Of a stretch of DNA of 64,000 nucleotides, positions 3,822 through 55,710 are shown piece by piece. The DNA is from Candidatus Accumulibacter sp. ACC003 (lineage in GTDB: Bacteria > Pseudomonadota > Gammaproteobacteria > Burkholderiales > Rhodocyclaceae), in the NCBI RefSeq assembly GCF_907163085.1, contig NZ_CAJQTX010000011.1, positions 62,001-126,000 on the forward strand, given 5' to 3'. The position numbers and the translations under genes are program-made. The notes below the pieces were generated by a model that searched no databases, was not told the DNA's origin, and worked only from the letters and a program-made list of their open reading frames with translations. Every line of letters starts with the position of its first letter. Position 1 is the stretch's first letter.

Positions 3822-4963
3822 GTGTTTAATTGCATAGATTAACGATAGTATTCCGCAGCTGCGCGCCCTTGACCTCTCGCTTTCGCCAGGCGAATGGGGC
3901 GGCGTTCTGGTTGTAAGCCGCGGTGAAGCTGTGAATGGCGGCAACGAGTTGATCCAGGCTCGAGAAGCTGGCGTTTCTCAGGGTCTTGCGCTGGAAGATG
4001 CCGAACCAAATCTCCACTTGGTTTAGCCAACTGGCGCTGGTGGGCGTGAAGTGAAAGGTGACGTTGGGGTGAGCGGCGAGCCACTCGTCGTTTTTCTTGT
4101 GCGTGTTGAGGTTGTCCAAGATGACGTGGATCTCACGGTCGACGGGTTCATCAGCGATGGTCTCCTCCATGAAGGCCTGGAAATCAGCGCGCTTCTTGGT
4201 TAGGGTAGTCTTGCCTCGAATGACGCCGGTGGCCACTTCGAGGGCGGCGAACAGGTTGACCGTGCCATGGCGTTTGTAGGTGCTTTTCAGTCCCTGAACC
4301 ACCTTTCCGCTACTGGTTTGGACATAGCCGCGCCGACGCTCCAGAGCCTGGATCGAGGGTTTCTCGTCGACGCTCAGGACCAGCGCGTTTTCAGGTGGGT
4401 TAAGGTACAACCCGATGACATCCGCTGCTTTGGCGGCGAACTCTGGGTCCGTGCTCACGCACCAGGAGCGATGCCGCTGCAGCTGGATGCCCTCCCGACG
4501 CAACACGCGCCACACGGCATCGTCCGATACTTCCAGCGCCTTCGCCAGCGAACCACCATCCCAACTTGCCATACCTTCCGGCGGTGTCCGTTCGAGTTGC
4601 GCCAGAATGCGGTCACGCAGATCCTGCCCGTACTTCGCCGGCTTGCCCGGCCGCGCAGCATCACGCAAGCCCGACAAACCATGCTCGGCAAAGCGCCGAC
4701 GCCACAGCCCCACCGTGTTCGCACGTACGCCAACTGCGCGGGCAACCTCGTCGTTTCGCAGACCCTCCAAACAACCCAGCACGATTCTCGCTCGCTCGGC
4801 CAAGCGAACCTCGCCACTGCGACTCCGTGACATACGCTCCAATTCCTCCTTCACCTCCGCTGTGCAAGACAGCGCCACCGCCACACGTCCCACCACATCT
4901 CCTCCACCACGAAGCAATGGAGAAGCATGATAGTTACTACCGGTTAATAATGCAATTAGACAT
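3822..4963 (-). mobile_element. IS630-family insertion sequence, copy 1
   Basis: 1,142 bp bounded by TA dinucleotides (3820-3821 and 4964-4965), the target duplication typical of IS630/Tc1. The terminal inverted repeats start GTGTTTAATTGCAT on one side and ATGTCTAATTGCAT on the other, so the outermost base of one end differs from copy 2 (54569-55710). Removing the IS and one TA restores the end of the dispersed repeat, matching the intact copy at 6767-6974. Confidence 0.92.
3826..4893 (-). CDS. IS630-family transposase
   Basis: About 355 aa. An N-terminal HTH (NDEVARAVGVRANTVGLWRR) is followed by a DDE/RNase H-fold domain with the acidic residues in LVLSVDEKPS, VILDNLNTHK and SWLNQVEIWFG. 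The likely start is a GTG at 4893 behind GGAGGAG; a TTG 24 bases upstream is also in frame. The protein is identical to that of copy 2, which suggests recent transposition. It occupies almost the whole IS. Confidence 0.92.
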   Translation of the reverse strand: MGRVAVALSCTAEVKEELERMSRSRSGEVRLAERARIVLGCLEGLRNDEVARAVGVRANTVGLWRRRFAEHGLSGLRDAARPGKPAKYGQDLRDRILAQLERTPPEGMASWDGGSLAKALEVSDDAVWRVLRREGIQLQRHRSWCVSTDPEFAAKAADVIGLYLNPPENALVLSVDEKPSIQALERRRGYVQTSSGKVVQGLKSTYKRHGTVNLFAALEVATGVIRGKTTLTKKRADFQAFMEETIADEPVDREIHVILDNLNTHKKNDEWLAAHPNVTFHFTPTSASWLNQVEIWFGIFQRKTLRNASFSSLDQLVAAIHSFTAAYNQNAAPFAWRKREVKGAQLRNTIVNLCN

Positions 4964-33441: not shown

Positions 33442-33834
33442 TTAGCGCTTCGAGAACTGCTTGCGGCGACGTGCTTTGTGGAAACCGACCTTCTTGCGCT
33501 CTACTTCACGCGCATCGCGAGTAACGAAGCCGGCCTTGGATAGCGTCGGCTTGAGCGAGGCGTCGTAGGCGATCAGGGCGCGGGTGATCCCGTGCCGCAC
33601 GGCACCGGCTTGTCCGGACTCGCCGCCACCGCCGACATTGACCAGGATGTCAAAGCCGGTCAGCTGTTCGACGAGGGTGAGCGGTTGGCGGACAATCATC
33701 CGTCCGGTTTCGCGAGAGAAGAACTCATCTACCGGTTTGCCGTTGACGACAAAATTGCCGCTTCCACGTTTCATGAAAACGCGAGCTACGGCGCTTTTTC
33801 GCCGACCCGTGCCATAGAAATAGTTATCAGCCAT
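33442..33834 (-). CDS. rpsI: 30S ribosomal protein S9
   Basis: 130 aa. It starts [20 protein letters not shown] and ends with the basic tail [16 protein letters not shown] that reaches the P-site t[26 protein letters not shown] and [14 protein letters not shown] are also typical. It is 9 bp downstream of rplM. Confidence 0.98.
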
Positions 33835-33843
33835 TGTGACCTC

Positions 33844-34272
33844 TTAGAGTTCCAGAACTTTCGGCTGCTGGGCAGCGTGCGGATGCGTTGTGCCTGCGTA
33901 GCACTTCATCTTCTTCAGCATCGCATAACCGAGGGGCCCCTTGGGGAGCATGCCTTTTACGGCATGTTCAAGAACTCGCCCGGGAAAGCGCTGCTGCATC
34001 TTGGTGAAGTTCGTCTCGTAGATGCCGCCCGGGTAGCCCGAGTGCCGATAGTATTTCTTGTCTTCGGCCTTGTTGCCGGTGACGCGCAGCTTTTCGACAT
34101 TGGTAACGACGATGTAGTCGCCAGTGTCCACGTGCGGGGTGAACTCAGGCTTGTGTTTGCCGCGTAGGCGGCGAGCGATTTCGGTTGCAAGGCGACCCAG
34201 CACCTTGTCCGTGGCATCAACAACTAGCCACTCGCGTTGCACTTCATGCGACTTGGCGGAGAAAGTCTTCAT
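33844..34272 (-). CDS. rplM: 50S ribosomal protein L13
   Basis: 142 aa. It starts [20 protein letters not shown], with [39 protein letters not shown] and [28 protein letters not shown] is the ribosome site. It is the first gene of rplM-rpsI, behind the promoter at 34317-34344. Confidence 0.98.
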
Positions 34273-34511: not shown

Positions 34512-34542
34512 AAAAAAAAGCGCGGCTCGTTGGAGCCGCGCT
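34512..34542 (-). terminator. Intrinsic terminator on the minus strand
   Basis: A 10-bp stem AGCGCGGCTC/GAGCCGCGCT with a 4-base loop, followed on the minus strand by eight T (34512-34519 read as A on the plus strand). No annotated minus-strand gene lies upstream of it, which is what points to the sRNA. Confidence 0.85.
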
Positions 34543-34608
34543 AAATCCACACCAAAGGAGGAGGGTGGAGGAGACATCGGTGAAGCGGAACAGCTAAGTG
34601 CTTACGGT
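34512..34608 (-). ncRNA. Candidate small RNA, about 97 nt
   Basis: A sigma-70 promoter (34615-34643) and a strong intrinsic terminator (34512-34542) on the minus strand enclose about 97 bases with no coding gene. The middle of the transcript contains CUCCUCCACCCUCCUCCUUU, a C-rich anti-Shine-Dalgarno sequence. This resembles sRNAs that base-pair with ribosome sites of target mRNAs. An in-frame AUG exists in it but has no ribosome site. The transcription start is estimated from the -10. I do not recognise a named family. Confidence 0.65.
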
Positions 34609-34614
34609 GCAAAC

Positions 34615-34643
34615 ATTATGCCTCGACCTAGTGCATAGGTCAA
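34615..34643 (-). promoter_or_regulatory. Sigma-70 promoter with operator-like dyad
   Basis: Minus strand: TTGACC, 17-base spacer, CATAAT. The spacer and -35 overlap a perfect dyad GACCTA-TGCAC-TAGGTC, suggesting a dimeric regulator binds between the two elements. Confidence 0.7.
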
Positions 34644-35027
34644 GTATTTTTGGTGCGTTGCGCCATATTTTTTTGCTTGGTCGATTGCATGTGCGTATCT
34701 ATCATACAAAAATACTCTAAAACAATAGTATACAATCATAGCAAGACATAGATTTCACAATAAGCAACGCTGTAGAGCGTCGTGTAAAGATGACTGCGTA
34801 CTTAAAATGCTGCGGTGCAGCAGGGGTTCTTGGCGTTCGCGTGCGCGCTCTTGCGTCTACAATGACAGGGCATGGTGTAGTTACCGCTGCTTCTGCGGGA
34901 AGGCGTCGAGCACTCTTTGGCGACGTGCCGTGCAAGCGCGGCGTACGATCATTGTTGCGTACGCAGGTTTTGATCATTGGGCTTTGACGTCTGTCATGCC
35001 CATTGGAGAACAGAGGGAGAGCAGGGC
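34644..35027. other. Intergenic, A/T-rich at its left side
   Basis: Positions 34644-34790 are unusually A/T-rich (TATTTTTTTGC, CAATAGTATACAATC). A minus-strand frame at 34717-34977 shows no family pattern. The OsmC promoter should lie at the right side. Confidence 0.4.
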
Positions 35028-35447
35028 ATGGAATGTAAAGTGAAGTGGACCGGTGACGGAATGTCCTTTATCGCCGAAACGGGGACCAATCACGCGCTGG
35101 TGATGGACGGTGCCGTCGAGGCCGGGGGGCGCAATCTGGCGCCGCGCCCGATGGAGCTGATGCTGGCCGGGGCCGGCGGCTGCGCCGCGTTCGACGTCGT
35201 CCTGATCCTGAAAAAAGGGCGGCACACCGTCAAGGGCTGTGAAGTGAGCCTGCAGGCCGAGCGCGCGGAGGTCGAGCCAAGGGTCTTTACGCGCATCCAT
35301 TTCCACTTCCGCGTTGCCGGCAAGCAACTGAAGCCGGAGCACGTGGCGCGAGCCATCGAGCTGTCACACGACAAGTATTGCTCGGCGACCAGCATGCTCA
35401 GCAAGACGGCGGTGATCACGCACGACTTCGAGATCGTCGAGGCTTGA
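35028..35447 (+). CDS. OsmC/Ohr family protein
   Basis: 139 aa. The start at 35028 follows GAGGGAGAGCAGGGC; 34977 is in frame but unsupported. The redox cysteines are in GAGGCAAFDVVLIL and DKYCSATSML, matching the YhfA-like branch of OsmC. It detoxifies organic peroxides or reactive sulfur with a thiol partner. It stands alone upstream of the IS91-type element. Confidence 0.88.
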   Translation: MECKVKWTGDGMSFIAETGTNHALVMDGAVEAGGRNLAPRPMELMLAGAGGCAAFDVVLILKKGRHTVKGCEVSLQAERAEVEPRVFTRIHFHFRVAGKQLKPEHVARAIELSHDKYCSATSMLSKTAVITHDFEIVEA

Positions 35448-35618
35448 AGGCGGGCGCTACTGCTGACACCTCGCGCCGTCTGCCGAAAGACTCACTCGCG
35501 AGGTGTTGGACGAAGCCGCTACGCGGAGGAAACCCCGGTGCTGTCGTCGCGTTGACTCAAGATGTGACCTCGCCCCTCATCCGAGGGACGTTCATGACGA
35601 ATGCGAGGTTACCGCAAG

Positions 35619-36535
35619 ATGGAAGAGATGTCCGCTGTCGCAACGACGATTTTTGACACGAACTACGAGCTGCACCAGAAGCACCTGAAGCTCAAGGGCT
35701 TGCAGCCGAAGACGATCGACGCGTATTCGCGCGCCGTCCGCCGGGTGGGAGATTACTTCGCTCATCAGATCGACGATCTGAGCGAGGCCGACCTGTTGGA
35801 TTACTTCGCCGACCTGCGTGAGACGCACTCCTGGAGTTCGCTCAAGCTCGATCTGTACGGGCTCAAGTTTTACTACGAGCACGTGCTGAAGAAACCCTGG
35901 GTGGCGCCCGGTCTGATCAAGCCGCCGCGCTCGCTGCGCCTGCCGGACATCGTCACGGTCGAGGAGACCGAGCGGATTTTTCTGGCCACGCAGGTGCTCA
36001 GTTACCGCGTTTTCTTCTTCACCCTCTACAGTCTCGGCCTGCGCCTGGGCGAAGGCTTACGGCTGACGGTCGCCGACATCGACGGCGCGCGCGGGCGGGT
36101 GCATATCCGCGATGCCAAGGGCAACAAGGATCGCCTGGTGCCGCTGCCGACGGCCACCTACCGACTCCTGCGTTGTTTCTGGCAGCGCCACCGTAATCCC
36201 GTTCTGCTGTTTCCCAATCGCCGCGGCGGCTTGCCAGGTGCGAGCAGCGCCAGGACACCGCTCAATCGCAGCGGCGTTCAGAAGGCACTGCGGGCGGTGG
36301 TCGAATCCTGCGGGCTAAAAAAAACATTTCGCCGCACAGTTTGCGTCACGCCTATGCCACGCACCTGATCGAGGCGGGCGTCGAGCTCACCGAGGTGCAG
36401 AGCATTCTCGGCCATCACTCGATTCTCACGACGGTTCGCTACACCCATCTGACGGATCAAACCCGGCATCACGCCATCGACCGCATCAACGCGCTGATGG
36501 ACCGCTTTTGTCTGAGCAAGGGGACGCCGCGATGA
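35619..36535 (+). CDS. Tyrosine recombinase of an IS91-type element, needs a -1 frameshift
   Basis: The first frame (to 36368) gives the core-binding domain (YELHQKHLKLKGLQPKTIDAY) and the catalytic domain up to LGLRLGEGLRL (Arg) and KGNKDRLVPLP (Lys). It then leaves phase at eight A (36317-36324). The -1 frame (to 36535) continues ISPHSLRHAYATHLIEAGVE and ILGHHSILTTVRYTHL with His, Arg, His and the Tyr nucleophile. A AAA AAA at 36317-36323 is a slippery heptamer in the right phase. Either programmed frameshifting gives the full ~305-aa enzyme, or the gene is mutated. The stop overlaps the next ATG. Confidence 0.75.
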
Positions 36536-37638
36536 TCCGCCTCGGCTCTGTCATTGCCGAATTCGAAGCGGACTTCATGACGCAATTTCGCCACCGCCTG
36601 AGCTTCGATCAGCTTCGGGCACTCTCGGCGATGCGCGATTGCCGCGGCCCGGCCAGCCCGATGATGCAGCTCCAGTGCGAAGGCTGCGATCAGCAAAAAC
36701 TCGTTCCGCATTCCTGCGGCCATCGCCTTTGCCCGCACTGCCAGCACCACGAGAGCCAGCAATGGCTGGAACGTCAGATAGAGCGCCTCGTCCCGGCCGA
36801 CTACTTTCTGCTGACCTTCACGCTGCCGGCCGAATTGCGCGGGCTCGCTGCGGCGCACGCCGACGTCGTCTTCGATGGCTTGATGCGCTGTGCCTGGGAA
36901 ACGGTGCACCGCTTCAGTCAGAACGACCGGCAGTTGCAGGGCACGCCCGGCGCCATCGCGGTCCTGCACACGCACTCGCGTCGGCTCGACTTCCACCCGC
37001 ATGTCCATCTCGTCGTCCCCGCGGCAGCGATCGATGCCGCGAAGCAGCGCTGGCGACGCAAGCGGCGCGGCAAGAACGGCACCTACCTGTTCAACGAGAA
37101 GGCGATGGCCAAGGTCTTCCGGGCCAAAATGCTGGCGGCGATCGAGGCGGCCGGCATTTGCCTGCCGGCGTCCTATCCGCGGGAATGGGTAGCGCACTGC
37201 AAATCGGTGGGCAGCGGCGAGAAGGCCCTGATCTACCTCGGTCGTTACCTCTACCGCGGCGTCATCCGTGAACAGGACATCCTCGCTTGTAAGGATGGGC
37301 GGGTGAGCTTCCGCTACCGCAACGCACAAACCGGCAAGTCGGAAAAGCGCTCGCTAGCCGGCGCCGATTTCCTCTGGCTGATCCTCCAGCACGTGCTACC
37401 CAAGGGCTTTCGCCGCGCCCGCAATTTCGGCTTCCTGCACGCCAACTGCAAGCGCCTGATCAGTTTGCTGCACCGCTTGCTGAAGTTCGATCCCAGCCGC
37501 TTCACGCCGCCGCGCAAGGAGCGGCCAGCGATGCTTTGCCCGTGCTGTGGCTCCGTGATGTCAATTGTCCGGACGCGTATTCGATCAACATCGCCCGCCT
37601 TCGTCGCTGCTCCACCGCTCGTCGCGATCGCTGCCTGA
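36532..37638 (+). CDS. IS91-family HUH transposase
   Basis: 368 aa. A zinc finger near the N-terminus has C-x2-C (LQCEGCDQQ) and HSCGHRLCPHCQ. The HUH metal motif is LDFHPHVHLVV, and the catalytic tyrosine region is LIYLGRYLYRG. It nicks and joins single strands for rolling-circle transposition. The start at 36532 overlaps the recombinase stop (ATGA). The C-terminus has LCPCCGS, a second Cys pair. The length matches the family. Confidence 0.9.
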   Translation: MIRLGSVIAEFEADFMTQFRHRLSFDQLRALSAMRDCRGPASPMMQLQCEGCDQQKLVPHSCGHRLCPHCQHHESQQWLERQIERLVPADYFLLTFTLPAELRGLAAAHADVVFDGLMRCAWETVHRFSQNDRQLQGTPGAIAVLHTHSRRLDFHPHVHLVVPAAAIDAAKQRWRRKRRGKNGTYLFNEKAMAKVFRAKMLAAIEAAGICLPASYPREWVAHCKSVGSGEKALIYLGRYLYRGVIREQDILACKDGRVSFRYRNAQTGKSEKRSLAGADFLWLILQHVLPKGFRRARNFGFLHANCKRLISLLHRLLKFDPSRFTPPRKERPAMLCPCCGSVMSIVRTRIRSTSPAFVAAPPLVAIAA

Positions 37639-38123: not shown

Positions 38124-38747
38124 CTAGACGTAGTAGGCGGTGCGGGTCATTGTTCGCGACGCCAGCTGCATACCCAGTCGTGCCGCAGCAGGCAGTTCGC
38201 GCGCACCCAGGCGGACGGCCGTCGCCGCATGCGAAATCTCGTCGACTCGCATCTGCTCGACGATCGCTCTGGATTTACGGTCTTGCCATGGTAGATCGCT
38301 GAGGTGATGGTCGAGGTGCGCTTCGACCTGTCGCTCGGTCTCGGCGAGAAAGCCAAGGCTCCATGGGTCGCCAAGCTTGCCGGCGCCGATGCCGATGGTC
38401 AGCGCGCCGATGTACCACAAAGGGTTCAAGAGGCTCTTGCGTCCGCGCAGTTCGACCAGGCGGCGCTCGGTCCAGGCCAGATGCTCGGTTTCTTCGGACG
38501 CCGCTTGCTGTAGAGCGTCGCGAAGTTCGGGATTACGGCAAGTCAGCGCCTGTCCCTGGTAAAGCGCCTGCGCGCAGACTTCGCCGACGTGGTTGACGCG
38601 CATCAGCGCAGCGGCATGGTTTCGCTCGTCATCGGACAGCTGCGCTTCAGCGTGCTTGCTTCCTGGCACTTCACGGGCAGTTGTCGCTGGCACAAAAAGC
38701 GTGCGCAGAGCCTTGTCGAACTCGATGACCAAGCGGTCGCTAATCAT
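38124..38747 (-). CDS. coq7: 5-demethoxyubiquinone hydroxylase Coq7
   Basis: 207 aa. The di-iron ligands are seen in [41 protein letters not shown] and [10 protein letters not shown]. It catalyses the last ring hydroxylation of ubiquinone at the membrane surface. Presence of Coq7 rather than UbiF fits betaproteobacteria. It follows the CNP1-like and rppH genes on the same strand. Confidence 0.93.
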
Positions 38748-54568: not shown

Positions 54569-55710
54569 GTGTCTAATTGCATTATTAACCGGTAGTAACT
54601 ATCATGCTTCTCCATTGCTTCGTGGTGGAGGAGATGTGGTGGGACGTGTGGCGGTGGCGCTGTCTTGCACAGCGGAGGTGAAGGAGGAATTGGAGCGTAT
54701 GTCACGGAGTCGCAGTGGCGAGGTTCGCTTGGCCGAGCGAGCGAGAATCGTGCTGGGTTGTTTGGAGGGTCTGCGAAACGACGAGGTTGCCCGCGCAGTT
54801 GGCGTACGTGCGAACACGGTGGGGCTGTGGCGTCGGCGCTTTGCCGAGCATGGTTTGTCGGGCTTGCGTGATGCTGCGCGGCCGGGCAAGCCGGCGAAGT
54901 ACGGGCAGGATCTGCGTGACCGCATTCTGGCGCAACTCGAACGGACACCGCCGGAAGGTATGGCAAGTTGGGATGGTGGTTCGCTGGCGAAGGCGCTGGA
55001 AGTATCGGACGATGCCGTGTGGCGCGTGTTGCGTCGGGAGGGCATCCAGCTGCAGCGGCATCGCTCCTGGTGCGTGAGCACGGACCCAGAGTTCGCCGCC
55101 AAAGCAGCGGATGTCATCGGGTTGTACCTTAACCCACCTGAAAACGCGCTGGTCCTGAGCGTCGACGAGAAACCCTCGATCCAGGCTCTGGAGCGTCGGC
55201 GCGGCTATGTCCAAACCAGTAGCGGAAAGGTGGTTCAGGGACTGAAAAGCACCTACAAACGCCATGGCACGGTCAACCTGTTCGCCGCCCTCGAAGTGGC
55301 CACCGGCGTCATTCGAGGCAAGACTACCCTAACCAAGAAGCGCGCTGATTTCCAGGCCTTCATGGAGGAGACCATCGCTGATGAACCCGTCGACCGTGAG
55401 ATCCACGTCATCTTGGACAACCTCAACACGCACAAGAAAAACGACGAGTGGCTCGCCGCTCACCCCAACGTCACCTTTCACTTCACGCCCACCAGCGCCA
55501 GTTGGCTAAACCAAGTGGAGATTTGGTTCGGCATCTTCCAGCGCAAGACCCTGAGAAACGCCAGCTTCTCGAGCCTGGATCAACTCGTTGCCGCCATTCA
55601 CAGCTTCACCGCGGCTTACAACCAGAACGCCGCCCCATTCGCCTGGCGAAAGCGAGAGGTCAAGGGCGCGCAGCTGCGGAATACTATCGTTAATCTATGC
55701 AATTAAACAC
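54569..55710 (+). mobile_element. IS630-family insertion sequence, copy 2 (nested)
   Basis: 1,142 bp flanked by TA (54567-54568 and 55711-55712). The ends start GTGTCTAATTGCAT and end ATGCAATTAAACAC. The empty site is preserved in copy B of the host IS, where CACTCCTAGCGA is uninterrupted. It is in the opposite orientation to copy 1. Confidence 0.95.
54639..55706 (+). CDS. IS630-family transposase, copy 2
   Basis: Same protein as at 3826-4893, with no residue difference seen. HTH, then DDE acids in SVDEKPS, LDNLNTHK and NQVEIWFG. The GTG start follows GGAGGAG; a TTG at 54615 is also in frame. Confidence 0.92.
   Translation: MGRVAVALSCTAEVKEELERMSRSRSGEVRLAERARIVLGCLEGLRNDEVARAVGVRANTVGLWRRRFAEHGLSGLRDAARPGKPAKYGQDLRDRILAQLERTPPEGMASWDGGSLAKALEVSDDAVWRVLRREGIQLQRHRSWCVSTDPEFAAKAADVIGLYLNPPENALVLSVDEKPSIQALERRRGYVQTSSGKVVQGLKSTYKRHGTVNLFAALEVATGVIRGKTTLTKKRADFQAFMEETIADEPVDREIHVILDNLNTHKKNDEWLAAHPNVTFHFTPTSASWLNQVEIWFGIFQRKTLRNASFSSLDQLVAAIHSFTAAYNQNAAPFAWRKREVKGAQLRNTIVNLCN

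What the first reader, a model, noticed from the sequence alone, without database searches (positions are those of the whole stretch)
34512..34643. Unannotated small-RNA gene with its own promoter, operator-like dyad and terminator
Seen: on the minus strand, TTGACC-17-CATAAT (34615-34643), then about 97 bases, then a 10-bp GC stem and eight T (34512-34542). There is no coding gene to explain the terminator. The promoter spacer overlaps a perfect GACCTA-N5-TAGGTC dyad. The body is rich in CCUCC, complementary to Shine-Dalgarno sequences. Inference: a regulated trans-acting sRNA that blocks ribosome sites.
Basis: partly seen in the sequence, partly recalled or inferred. Interest (0 to 1): 0.78.

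Follow-up and report, generated by a model that had tools for sequence, protein, structure and literature searches.

The report
Storage-linked small RNA that blocks ribosomes
The stretch is a real small-RNA gene of an already described family that covers ribosome-binding sites, and its promoter carries what look like binding sites for PhaR, the protein that senses stored carbon (PHB), which suggests that cells use this RNA to turn fuel uptake and use down when their store is filling.

Summary
The minus-strand gene (predicted 97-nt RNA, 34608-34512) is Rfam RF02278, 'Betaproteobacteria toxic sRNA' (69.9 bits, cut-off 50), the family of S17 (Bordetella pertussis) and of the Burkholderia double-hairpin RNAs. 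By position (coq7-osmC / sRNA-rplM-rpsI) it is the counterpart of S17. Promoter and terminator are conserved in Candidatus Accumulibacter and the terminator stem covaries.

The conserved operator-like sites lie upstream: 34648-34668 beside the -35, and 34805-34825, 156-158 bp apart in 21 of 22 Accumulibacter loci. They resemble published motifs of PhaR/PhbF, the PHB-sensing repressor. In the same genome such sites precede phaP and phaR. In a Burkholderiales sample the site precedes 44 of 55 sRNA copies of phaR-bearing genomes and 1 of 27 copies of genomes without phaR. In a Bordetella S17-type promoter it covers the -35, a candidate for S17's unidentified repressor site.

Best model: PHB accumulation titrates PhaR, the sRNA rises and masks Shine-Dalgarno sites of uptake and catabolic genes. 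Binding and direction are inferred. PhaR control of another sRNA (MmgR) is known in Sinorhizobium; my searches found no report for this family.

The parts
34512..34576 (-). RF02278 core of the sRNA, probably also the processed short form (S17S-like)
   Evidence: cmscan 69.9 bits, gathering 50, model 1-64 of 64; the near-invariant block begins at about UGUCUCC. Processing is inferred from S17
34577..34608 (-). variable 5' leader of the predicted primary transcript; start predicted at A34608
   Evidence: 7 nt after the -10; the distance from -10 to core varies from 37 to 125 nt in 22 loci; the start is an inference
34570..34576 (-). single-stranded UGUCUCC, anti-Shine-Dalgarno site 1
   Evidence: RNA fold; conservation
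34546..34569 (-). first hairpin UCCACCC-UCCUCCUUU-GGUGUGGA; its loop (34554-34562) is anti-Shine-Dalgarno site 2
   Evidence: RNA fold; its pairs hardly vary, so covariation says nothing about it
34512..34542 (-). intrinsic terminator: 10-bp stem and U tract
   Evidence: 8 of 10 pairs show changes on both sides in 24 sequences
34615..34620 (-). -10 CATAAT
   Evidence: nATAAn in 22 of 22
34638..34643 (-). -35 TTGACC
   Evidence: TTGA in 22 of 22
34648..34668 (-). proximal PhaR-type site ATATGGCGCAACGCACCAAAA
   Evidence: 0 mismatches to the published S. meliloti PhaR 21-mer; a core YGCRNYGCA here in 22 of 22 loci
34805..34825 (-). distal PhaR-type site; perfect palindrome TGCTGC-ACC-GCAGCA at 34808-34822
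   Evidence: 2 arm mismatches to the 21-mer; own-genome scan; distal site in 21 of 22 loci, 156-158 bp from the proximal one
34744..34772 (-). conserved block TTnCnTATtgTGnAAnnnATnT of unknown role between the two sites
   Evidence: conservation profile of 22 loci
   Evidence: 1 of 22 promoters
33844..34272 (-). rplM (downstream neighbour; rpsI at 33442-33834)
   Evidence: ORFs, synteny by tblastn; gene names recalled from the protein sequences, no family search made
35028..35447 (+). OsmC-family gene, divergent upstream neighbour
   Evidence: NF008009, 150.4 bits, cut-off 138; conserved neighbour
38124..38747 (-). coq7, the gene beside S17 in B. pertussis
   Evidence: ORF, tblastn synteny; gene name recalled; S17-coq7 neighbourhood from PMC11722255

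Best explanation
This is the Candidatus Accumulibacter member of the RF02278 anti-Shine-Dalgarno sRNA family. A sigma-70-type promoter makes a roughly 97-nt RNA that is probably trimmed to the 65-nt core. Two CU-rich segments pair with ribosome-binding sites of uptake and catabolic mRNAs and block translation. Its transcription is controlled by PhaR through two sites, one beside the -35 and one about 157 bp upstream. When PHB is low, free PhaR represses the gene; when PHB granules form they titrate PhaR and the sRNA rises, slowing fuel intake. Shown here: family membership, structure, conserved promoter, sites that fit published PhaR motifs, and absence of such sites where phaR is absent. Inferred: PhaR binding, the sign of control, processing, and the targets in this organism.
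For: Family: 69.9 bits over cut-off 50, single copy, 22 of 25 same-genus genomes, own included. Locus counterpart of S17: of 121 named copies 111 have at least one of rplM, rpsI, osmC, coq7 in the held DNA. Structure: z -3.98, covariation. Sites by published motifs: PhbF consensus exact upstream of 66 of 141 copies, downstream control 0 of 132; S. meliloti PhaR 21-mer with up to 2 arm mismatches 118 of 141 against 10 of 132. phaR test: TGC-RNY-GCA in 44 of 55 copies with phaR, 1 of 27 without, p 1e-11; PhbF consensus 22 of 55 against 0 of 27. Same genome: sites before the phasin gene and before phaR; phaR in one copy. The phasin promoter has a site at nearly the same distance from its -35 (8 against 7 bp). 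TGYTGCRNYGCARCA in 16 Accumulibacter genomes: 107 places, backwards control 6. Function of relatives: S17 represses BP2158; NcS27 overexpression slows growth on several substrates (PMC11722255, PMC10987360).
Against: Eleven of 55 copies in phaR-bearing genomes lack the strict site. 38 of 159 sRNA-bearing genomes have no phaR, so the family persists without it, and sRNA and phaR are only weakly associated as genes (p 0.003). The proximal site has CGC in place of TGC in 21 of 22 Accumulibacter loci, so it fits the alphaproteobacterial motif but not the Herbaspirillum one. Of 26 motif places in the own genome my script called only 3 intergenic; the phaR, sRNA, globin and phosphotransacetylase cases were judged upstream by eye, and most other places have no PHB connection. 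In G010 only 1 of 9 further places precedes a phasin gene. The RNY centre was thought of after seeing and then measured on the named loci. Relatedness inflates the phaR comparison; by family it is 15 of 17 against 1 of 9. No binding, transcript or mutant data exist here.
Confidence: 0.75

Rival explanations
1. The sRNA is an ordinary RF02278 member and the TGC-N3-GCA palindromes belong to another regulator that happens to be lost together with phaR.
For: No binding data; 11 of 55 phaR-bearing copies lack the strict site; a further conserved block at 34744-34772 shows that other factors may bind; most own-genome motif places have no PHB connection.
Against: The motif fits two published PhaR/PhbF motifs and precedes phaP and phaR in the same genome; elsewhere it precedes a phasin gene (G010) and a short-chain dehydrogenase that could be phaB (G028).
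Confidence: 0.12
2. PhaR binds here but activates the sRNA, so the RNA is high when PHB is absent.
For: The proximal site lies upstream of the -35, a place used by activators too; S. meliloti PhaR has proteins that appear activated (passages of PMC12542648).
Against: In a Bordetella locus and in one genome of family f31 (G262) the palindrome contains the -35 itself, which suits a repressor; PhbF represses phaP1 and phbF, and PhaR is reported as a repressor of mmgR.
Confidence: 0.1
3. The palindromes serve the divergent osmC gene and not the sRNA.
For: The distal site lies between the two genes, 206 bp from the osmC start codon; osmC is a conserved neighbour.
Against: Of 10 named copies without any of the four neighbour genes in the held DNA, 7 still have TGC-N3-GCA upstream (some of these stretches end close to the gene); in the Bordetella locus the nearest of the four is coq7 and the site overlaps the sRNA -35.
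Confidence: 0.05
4. The element is only an intrinsic terminator or the 3' end of another transcript, with no sRNA function.
For: No transcript data for this organism; short frames in the gap were not tested.
Against: Own conserved promoter, near-invariant CU-rich core, covarying stem, and expression of homologues shown by others in Bordetella and Burkholderia.
Confidence: 0.02

Closest known systems
Rfam RF02278 Betaproteobacteria toxic small RNA (double-hairpin RNAs ncS03, ncS05, ncS27, ncS62 of Burkholderia cenocepacia)
   Same: Sequence, two hairpins, CU-rich unpaired segments, terminator; over the family cut-off
   Different: Single copy here, four in B. cenocepacia J2315; toxicity not tested; PhaR control not mentioned in the passages I read
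S17 of Bordetella pertussis
   Same: Same neighbourhood (coq7), same kind of 5' core, leader plus short core, sigma-70-type promoter
   Different: S17 is described as higher in the Bvg+ mode, with a postulated, unidentified repressor; in the Bordetella contig read here the site covers the -35, in Accumulibacter it lies just upstream
MmgR (alpha r8; Rfam RF00519) of Sinorhizobium meliloti
   Same: Hfq-dependent sRNA of 77 nt tied to PHB and reported as repressed by PhaR (AniA) through the same kind of palindrome
   Different: Other RNA family: this RNA scores 23 bits where 41 are needed and 2 of 20 relatives gave a weak match; MmgR acts on phasin expression
NmsR RNAs of Neisseria (RF02877)
   Same: CU-rich segments complementary to ribosome-binding sites, metabolic targets; weak score 30.3 bits and weak matches in some of 20 relatives
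   Different: Below the cut-off of 52; tandem genes; no PhaR link known to me

Membership tests
RF02278 Betaproteobacteria toxic sRNA | Covariance-model score at or above the gathering score | tested here: met
   69.9 against 50 bits, full length
RF02278 Betaproteobacteria toxic sRNA | Two hairpins, CU-rich unpaired stretches, rho-independent terminator | tested here: met
RF02278 Betaproteobacteria toxic sRNA | Growth inhibition when expressed in E. coli | not testable with these tools
   Reported for Burkholderia members; [quoted passage not shown] coli (PMC11722255)
S17 locus counterpart | Position next to coq7 / osmC / rplM | tested here: met
   S17 beside coq7. In the window an IS91 transposase gene lies between osmC and coq7
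PhaR regulon | Promoter site fitting a published PhaR/PhbF motif | tested here: met
   Proximal 0 and distal 2 arm mismatches to the S. meliloti 21-mer; the proximal site does not fit the PhbF consensus
PhaR regulon | phaR present, and sites absent where phaR is absent | tested here: met
   44 of 55 against 1 of 27; 17 of the 38 sRNA-bearing genomes without phaR were not read
PhaR regulon | PhaR binds the promoter and a phaR deletion changes expression | not testable with these tools
   needs EMSA and Northern blot
RF00519 MmgR / suhB | Score at or above the gathering score | tested here: not met
   23 of 41 bits; 2 of 20 relatives with weak matches
RF02877 NmsRb | Score at or above the gathering score | tested here: not met
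   30.3 of 52 bits

The most novel reading that the evidence does not exclude
RF02278 sRNAs across Betaproteobacteria are the output arm of the PHB-store sensor PhaR: granule content is converted into an anti-ribosome-binding-site RNA that shuts down carbon and amino-acid intake. This would explain NcS27's metabolic shutdown, supply the missing repressor of S17, and, with MmgR in Alphaproteobacteria, make 'PhaR controls a CU-rich sRNA' a recurrent proteobacterial design carried by different RNA families. In Accumulibacter it would couple the PHA cycle of phosphorus-removing sludge to translation.
Probability: 0.6. Interest if true: 0.74.

Novelty: new variant of a known kind. Interest (0 to 1): 0.6.

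Why it matters
A widespread RNA family known as 'toxic', for which I found no named regulator, gets a specific, testable input. It gives a candidate for the repressor that the S17 authors postulated, a possible reason why the Burkholderia RNAs rise at growth arrest, and a handle on how PHA cycling is tied to gene expression in organisms used for phosphorus removal and bioplastic production.

Tried and rejected
A first script for this used a wrong spacer length and matched nothing; corrected.

Homology with MmgR (RF00519): not supported.

Plain co-occurrence of sRNA and phaR: only a weak association (121 both, 38 sRNA only, 52 phaR only, 39 neither, of 250; p 0.003). Presence of the genes is not the argument; the site is.

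Helical phasing or looping as a rule: the spacing of 156-158 bp holds in Accumulibacter and in six named loci (157-158), but other pairs are 56, 123, 146, 175, 196 bp apart and so on; no looping claim is made.

Target prediction: GGAGGAGA-N2-10-ATG gave 31 places in the own genome (backwards control 6). Of the 30 fetched, 14 are one repeated element with an identical 42-codon frame, 11 start an ORF of 80 aa or more, 5 do not. Ten of the 11 went to Pfam: CoA transferase, polyphosphate kinase 2 domain (polyphosphate:AMP phosphotransferase), malonyl-CoA decarboxylase, AMP-binding enzyme, DctP, GshA, ferredoxin and three others. These are leads only, since any Shine-Dalgarno-like sequence would match.

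Unread: Kimelman 2012, the source of the name 'toxic', is not held. PMC5688073 mentions an upstream motif shared by three double-hairpin RNAs in its Fig. S3; the session allows no look at supplements and I tried none, so the same motif may be drawn there without a name.

Corrected on checking: the spacer of the own phasin promoter is 16, not 17.

Full report
What is there. On the minus strand the window holds a -35 (34643-34638), a 17-bp spacer, a -10 (34620-34615), a leader, a CU-rich core and an intrinsic terminator ending at 34512. In the 64 kb two Rfam matches reach their gathering score: a tRNA and, at 34576-34512, RF02278, Betaproteobacteria toxic small RNA, with 69.9 bits (cut-off 50). 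The predicted 97-nt RNA folds into a first hairpin with a CU-rich loop and a terminator hairpin (z -3.98). The gene is single copy in its own genome and found in 22 of 25 same-genus genomes, own included; the three misses are 72, 88 and 83% complete. The genus is taken to be Candidatus Accumulibacter because two relatives have contigs whose lengths equal those of named Accumulibacter records (G008:C67 44677 and L056; G012:C59 47553 and L088); this is an inference.

Of the 30 loci kept, 22 are of this genus. In these the promoter TTGAnn-17-nATAAn is present in 22 and the spacer dyad in 1, the window itself. In 24 aligned sequences (21 of the genus, 3 of other genera; L025 left out because of an insertion) the CU-rich core is almost invariant and 8 of 10 terminator pairs show changes on both sides, against a shuffle mean of 1.9 pairs for the whole structure. 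So the sRNA reading passes and the dyad reading fails.

Known relatives. S17 of Bordetella pertussis (PMC11722255; abstract, passages and sections 5, 13 and 30 seen) is a 190-nt RNA cut by RNase E to 67 nt, Hfq-dependent, beside coq7, repressing BP2158; its authors name RF02278 as kin and postulate an unidentified repressor of its promoter. Burkholderia cenocepacia double-hairpin RNAs (PMC4603805 passages; PMC5688073 section 6 and passages) are RF02278 members; ncS27 overexpression attenuates growth. A review calls NcS27 a regulator of metabolism shutdown (PMC10987360 passages). Herbaspirillum seropedicae has four (PMC7011215 passages). Synteny ties the window gene to S17: of 121 named copies, 111 have at least one of RplM, RpsI, OsmC and Coq7 in the held stretch (RplM 58, RpsI 56, OsmC 98, Coq7 65; many stretches end close to the gene); in a Bordetella contig (L086) Coq7 lies 231 bp away. 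In the window an IS91 transposase gene (36508-37638, NF033538) lies between osmC and coq7.

The sites. In the genus the upstream region has a few islands of conservation: a distal palindrome aTGcTGC..cGCA.CAT, a block of unknown role, a proximal palindrome against the -35, and the promoter. The palindromes resemble TG[N]TGC[N]3GCAA, the consensus of PhbF (PhaR) of H. seropedicae, found by MEME and supported by footprinting (PMC3206438 passages). With that consensus used exactly on both strands, 66 of 141 sRNA copies have a site within 400 nt upstream, against 0 of 132 downstream stretches. With the S. meliloti PhaR motif (PMC12542648 passages; read by me as the 21-mer WNWDDNYGCRNYGCRNHHWNW), core intact and up to two arm mismatches, it is 118 of 141 against 10 of 132; with none, 47 against 0. 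The 141 are the copies with at least 250 nt upstream out of 147; 6 were dropped. Looser counts agree: 97 of 146 against 4 downstream and 1.7 by shuffling, though the bare TGC-N3-GCA is found upstream of 132 and downstream of 66 of the 146, so the bare core alone is weak evidence; 78 of 141 at 11 or more of 12 positions, against 2 of 132 downstream and 23 of 1889 other 400-nt windows of the same loci.

Link to phaR. In an order-wide sample of 250 genomes (at least 95% completeness asked), 159 have the sRNA at E 0.001 and 173 have phaR (TIGR01848); 121 have both and 38 the sRNA without phaR. I read the upstream DNA of 27 sRNA copies from 21 of those 38 genomes (strong matches mostly; the other 17 were not read) and of 55 copies from 55 phaR-bearing genomes: 35 from the top of the score list, in which range G000, G034, G027 (held already) and G201 were not taken, and 20 to widen the families and to get same-genus pairs. 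TGC-RNY-GCA is present in 44 of 55 and in 1 of 27 (p 1e-11; by family 15 of 17 and 1 of 9). The RNY centre occurred to me on seeing; measured on the named loci it holds for 147 of 175 upstream and 7 of 50 downstream cores. Some named loci may be the same species as sampled genomes. Shuffling expects 1.5 of 55 and 0.7 of 25. Without the RNY rule the first 35 gave 30 of 35 against 6 of 27. Untuned motifs agree: PhbF consensus 22 of 55 against 0 of 27; 21-mer with up to two mismatches 46 of 55 against 2 of 27. One genus holds both states: G174 with phaR has TCTTGCAACGCAACA, G270 without phaR has none. In another, G273 with phaR has a site, G149 with phaR lacks the strict one, and G033 without phaR lacks it.

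The same motif in the same genome. TGYTGCNNNGCANCA occurs at 26 places in the window's genome (35 rows; backwards control 0). My ORF script called 3 of the 26 intergenic and 23 inside a frame of at least 70 aa, but several of those frames are overlong or spurious. By domain search and by eye the places include two in the promoter of a phasin gene, one just before the start of phaR, one between divergent phosphotransacetylase-like and NADH-dehydrogenase-like genes, one between isocitrate dehydrogenase and aceK, one upstream of a globin gene, and the sRNA distal site. Most of the rest have no PHB connection that I could see. The phasin promoter resembles the sRNA promoter: TGTTGCGGCGCACCA, eight bases, TTGACA, 16 bases, TATAAT, then a second site. 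The stricter TGYTGCRNYGCARCA occurs 107 times in 16 Accumulibacter genomes, backwards control 6. Of nine such places in G010 other than the sRNA's, one precedes a phasin gene, one lies by the phosphotransacetylase/NADH-dehydrogenase pair and one by a CoA-ligase gene; the other six showed no PHB gene (one was not scanned). Of five places in G027, G028 and G031, one precedes a short-chain dehydrogenase that could be phaB.

Position and sign. In the window the proximal core ends 10 bp before the -35; the distal one is 156-158 bp further up in 21 of 22 loci, and the 22nd (L014) lacks the distal site. In the Bordetella contig L086 the promoter TTGCAA-17-TACTAT (the paper gives TTGCAT and TACTAT for B. 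pertussis S17) lies inside the site TTGCAACGCACAA, with a second site 57 bp upstream. In G262, a genome of the unnamed family f31 in which the core lies 9 nt after the -10, the near-site TGTTGCAATGCGGAA likewise contains the -35. Such placing suits repression, as reported for phaP1 and phbF and for mmgR of S. meliloti, an sRNA whose promoter PhaR binds. Hence the model: PHB titrates PhaR and the sRNA is released. The sign is inferred.

What it would do. The two CU-rich segments correspond to the binding sites described for S17. A strict search for complementary ribosome sites in the window's genome gives candidates among acyl-CoA, polyphosphate, malonyl-CoA and uptake genes, which I rate as leads only.

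Whether it is in print. Searches for the Rfam name and number, toxic small RNA, BdhR1, ncS27, PhbF, PhaR with sRNA, Accumulibacter with sRNA, and PhaR regulon (three lists were capped at 15 or 20 of 31 to 59 papers) and passages of PMC12542648, PMC8401924, PMC9049629 and PMC12576926 gave no statement that PhaR controls RF02278 RNAs. The Kimelman paper, the NcS27 paper of 2019 and all supplements were not seen, and most subscription papers are not held, so this is not proof of absence.

Noticed in passing
window 34744-34772 (minus strand): A block TTnCnTATtgTGnAAnnnATnT is conserved between the two PhaR-type sites in 22 Accumulibacter loci; it fits no motif I know and may be a second regulator's site or part of the osmC promoter region.
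   Followed up: partly
window 35601-37638: An IS91-family transposase gene (36508-37638, NF033538), with a recombinase-like ORF before it (recalled, not searched), sits between osmC and coq7, splitting a neighbourhood that is conserved elsewhere.
   Followed up: partly
window 3826-4917 (-) and 54615-55706 (+): Two 363-aa ORFs with the same translation as printed, transposase-like (IS630 type, recalled); a 20-base stretch inside them occurs 14 times in the genome pattern search.
   Followed up: partly
L086 (contig labelled Bordetella parapertussis MAG), about 199 and 142 nt upstream of the sRNA core: Two PhaR-type sites, one containing the -35 of an S17-type promoter: a candidate for the unidentified S17 repressor site.
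   Followed up: partly
L273:1-1503 (own genome, C2:594207): A polyphosphate:AMP phosphotransferase gene has GGAGGAGA at its ribosome site, complementary to the sRNA; possible link between PHA and polyphosphate control.
   Followed up: no
L078, L112, L147 (Pandoraea): sRNA copies with none of the four usual neighbours in the held DNA share the same best (8 of 12) upstream match and have no TGC-N3-GCA within 400 nt, so some paralogues may have escaped this control.
   Followed up: no
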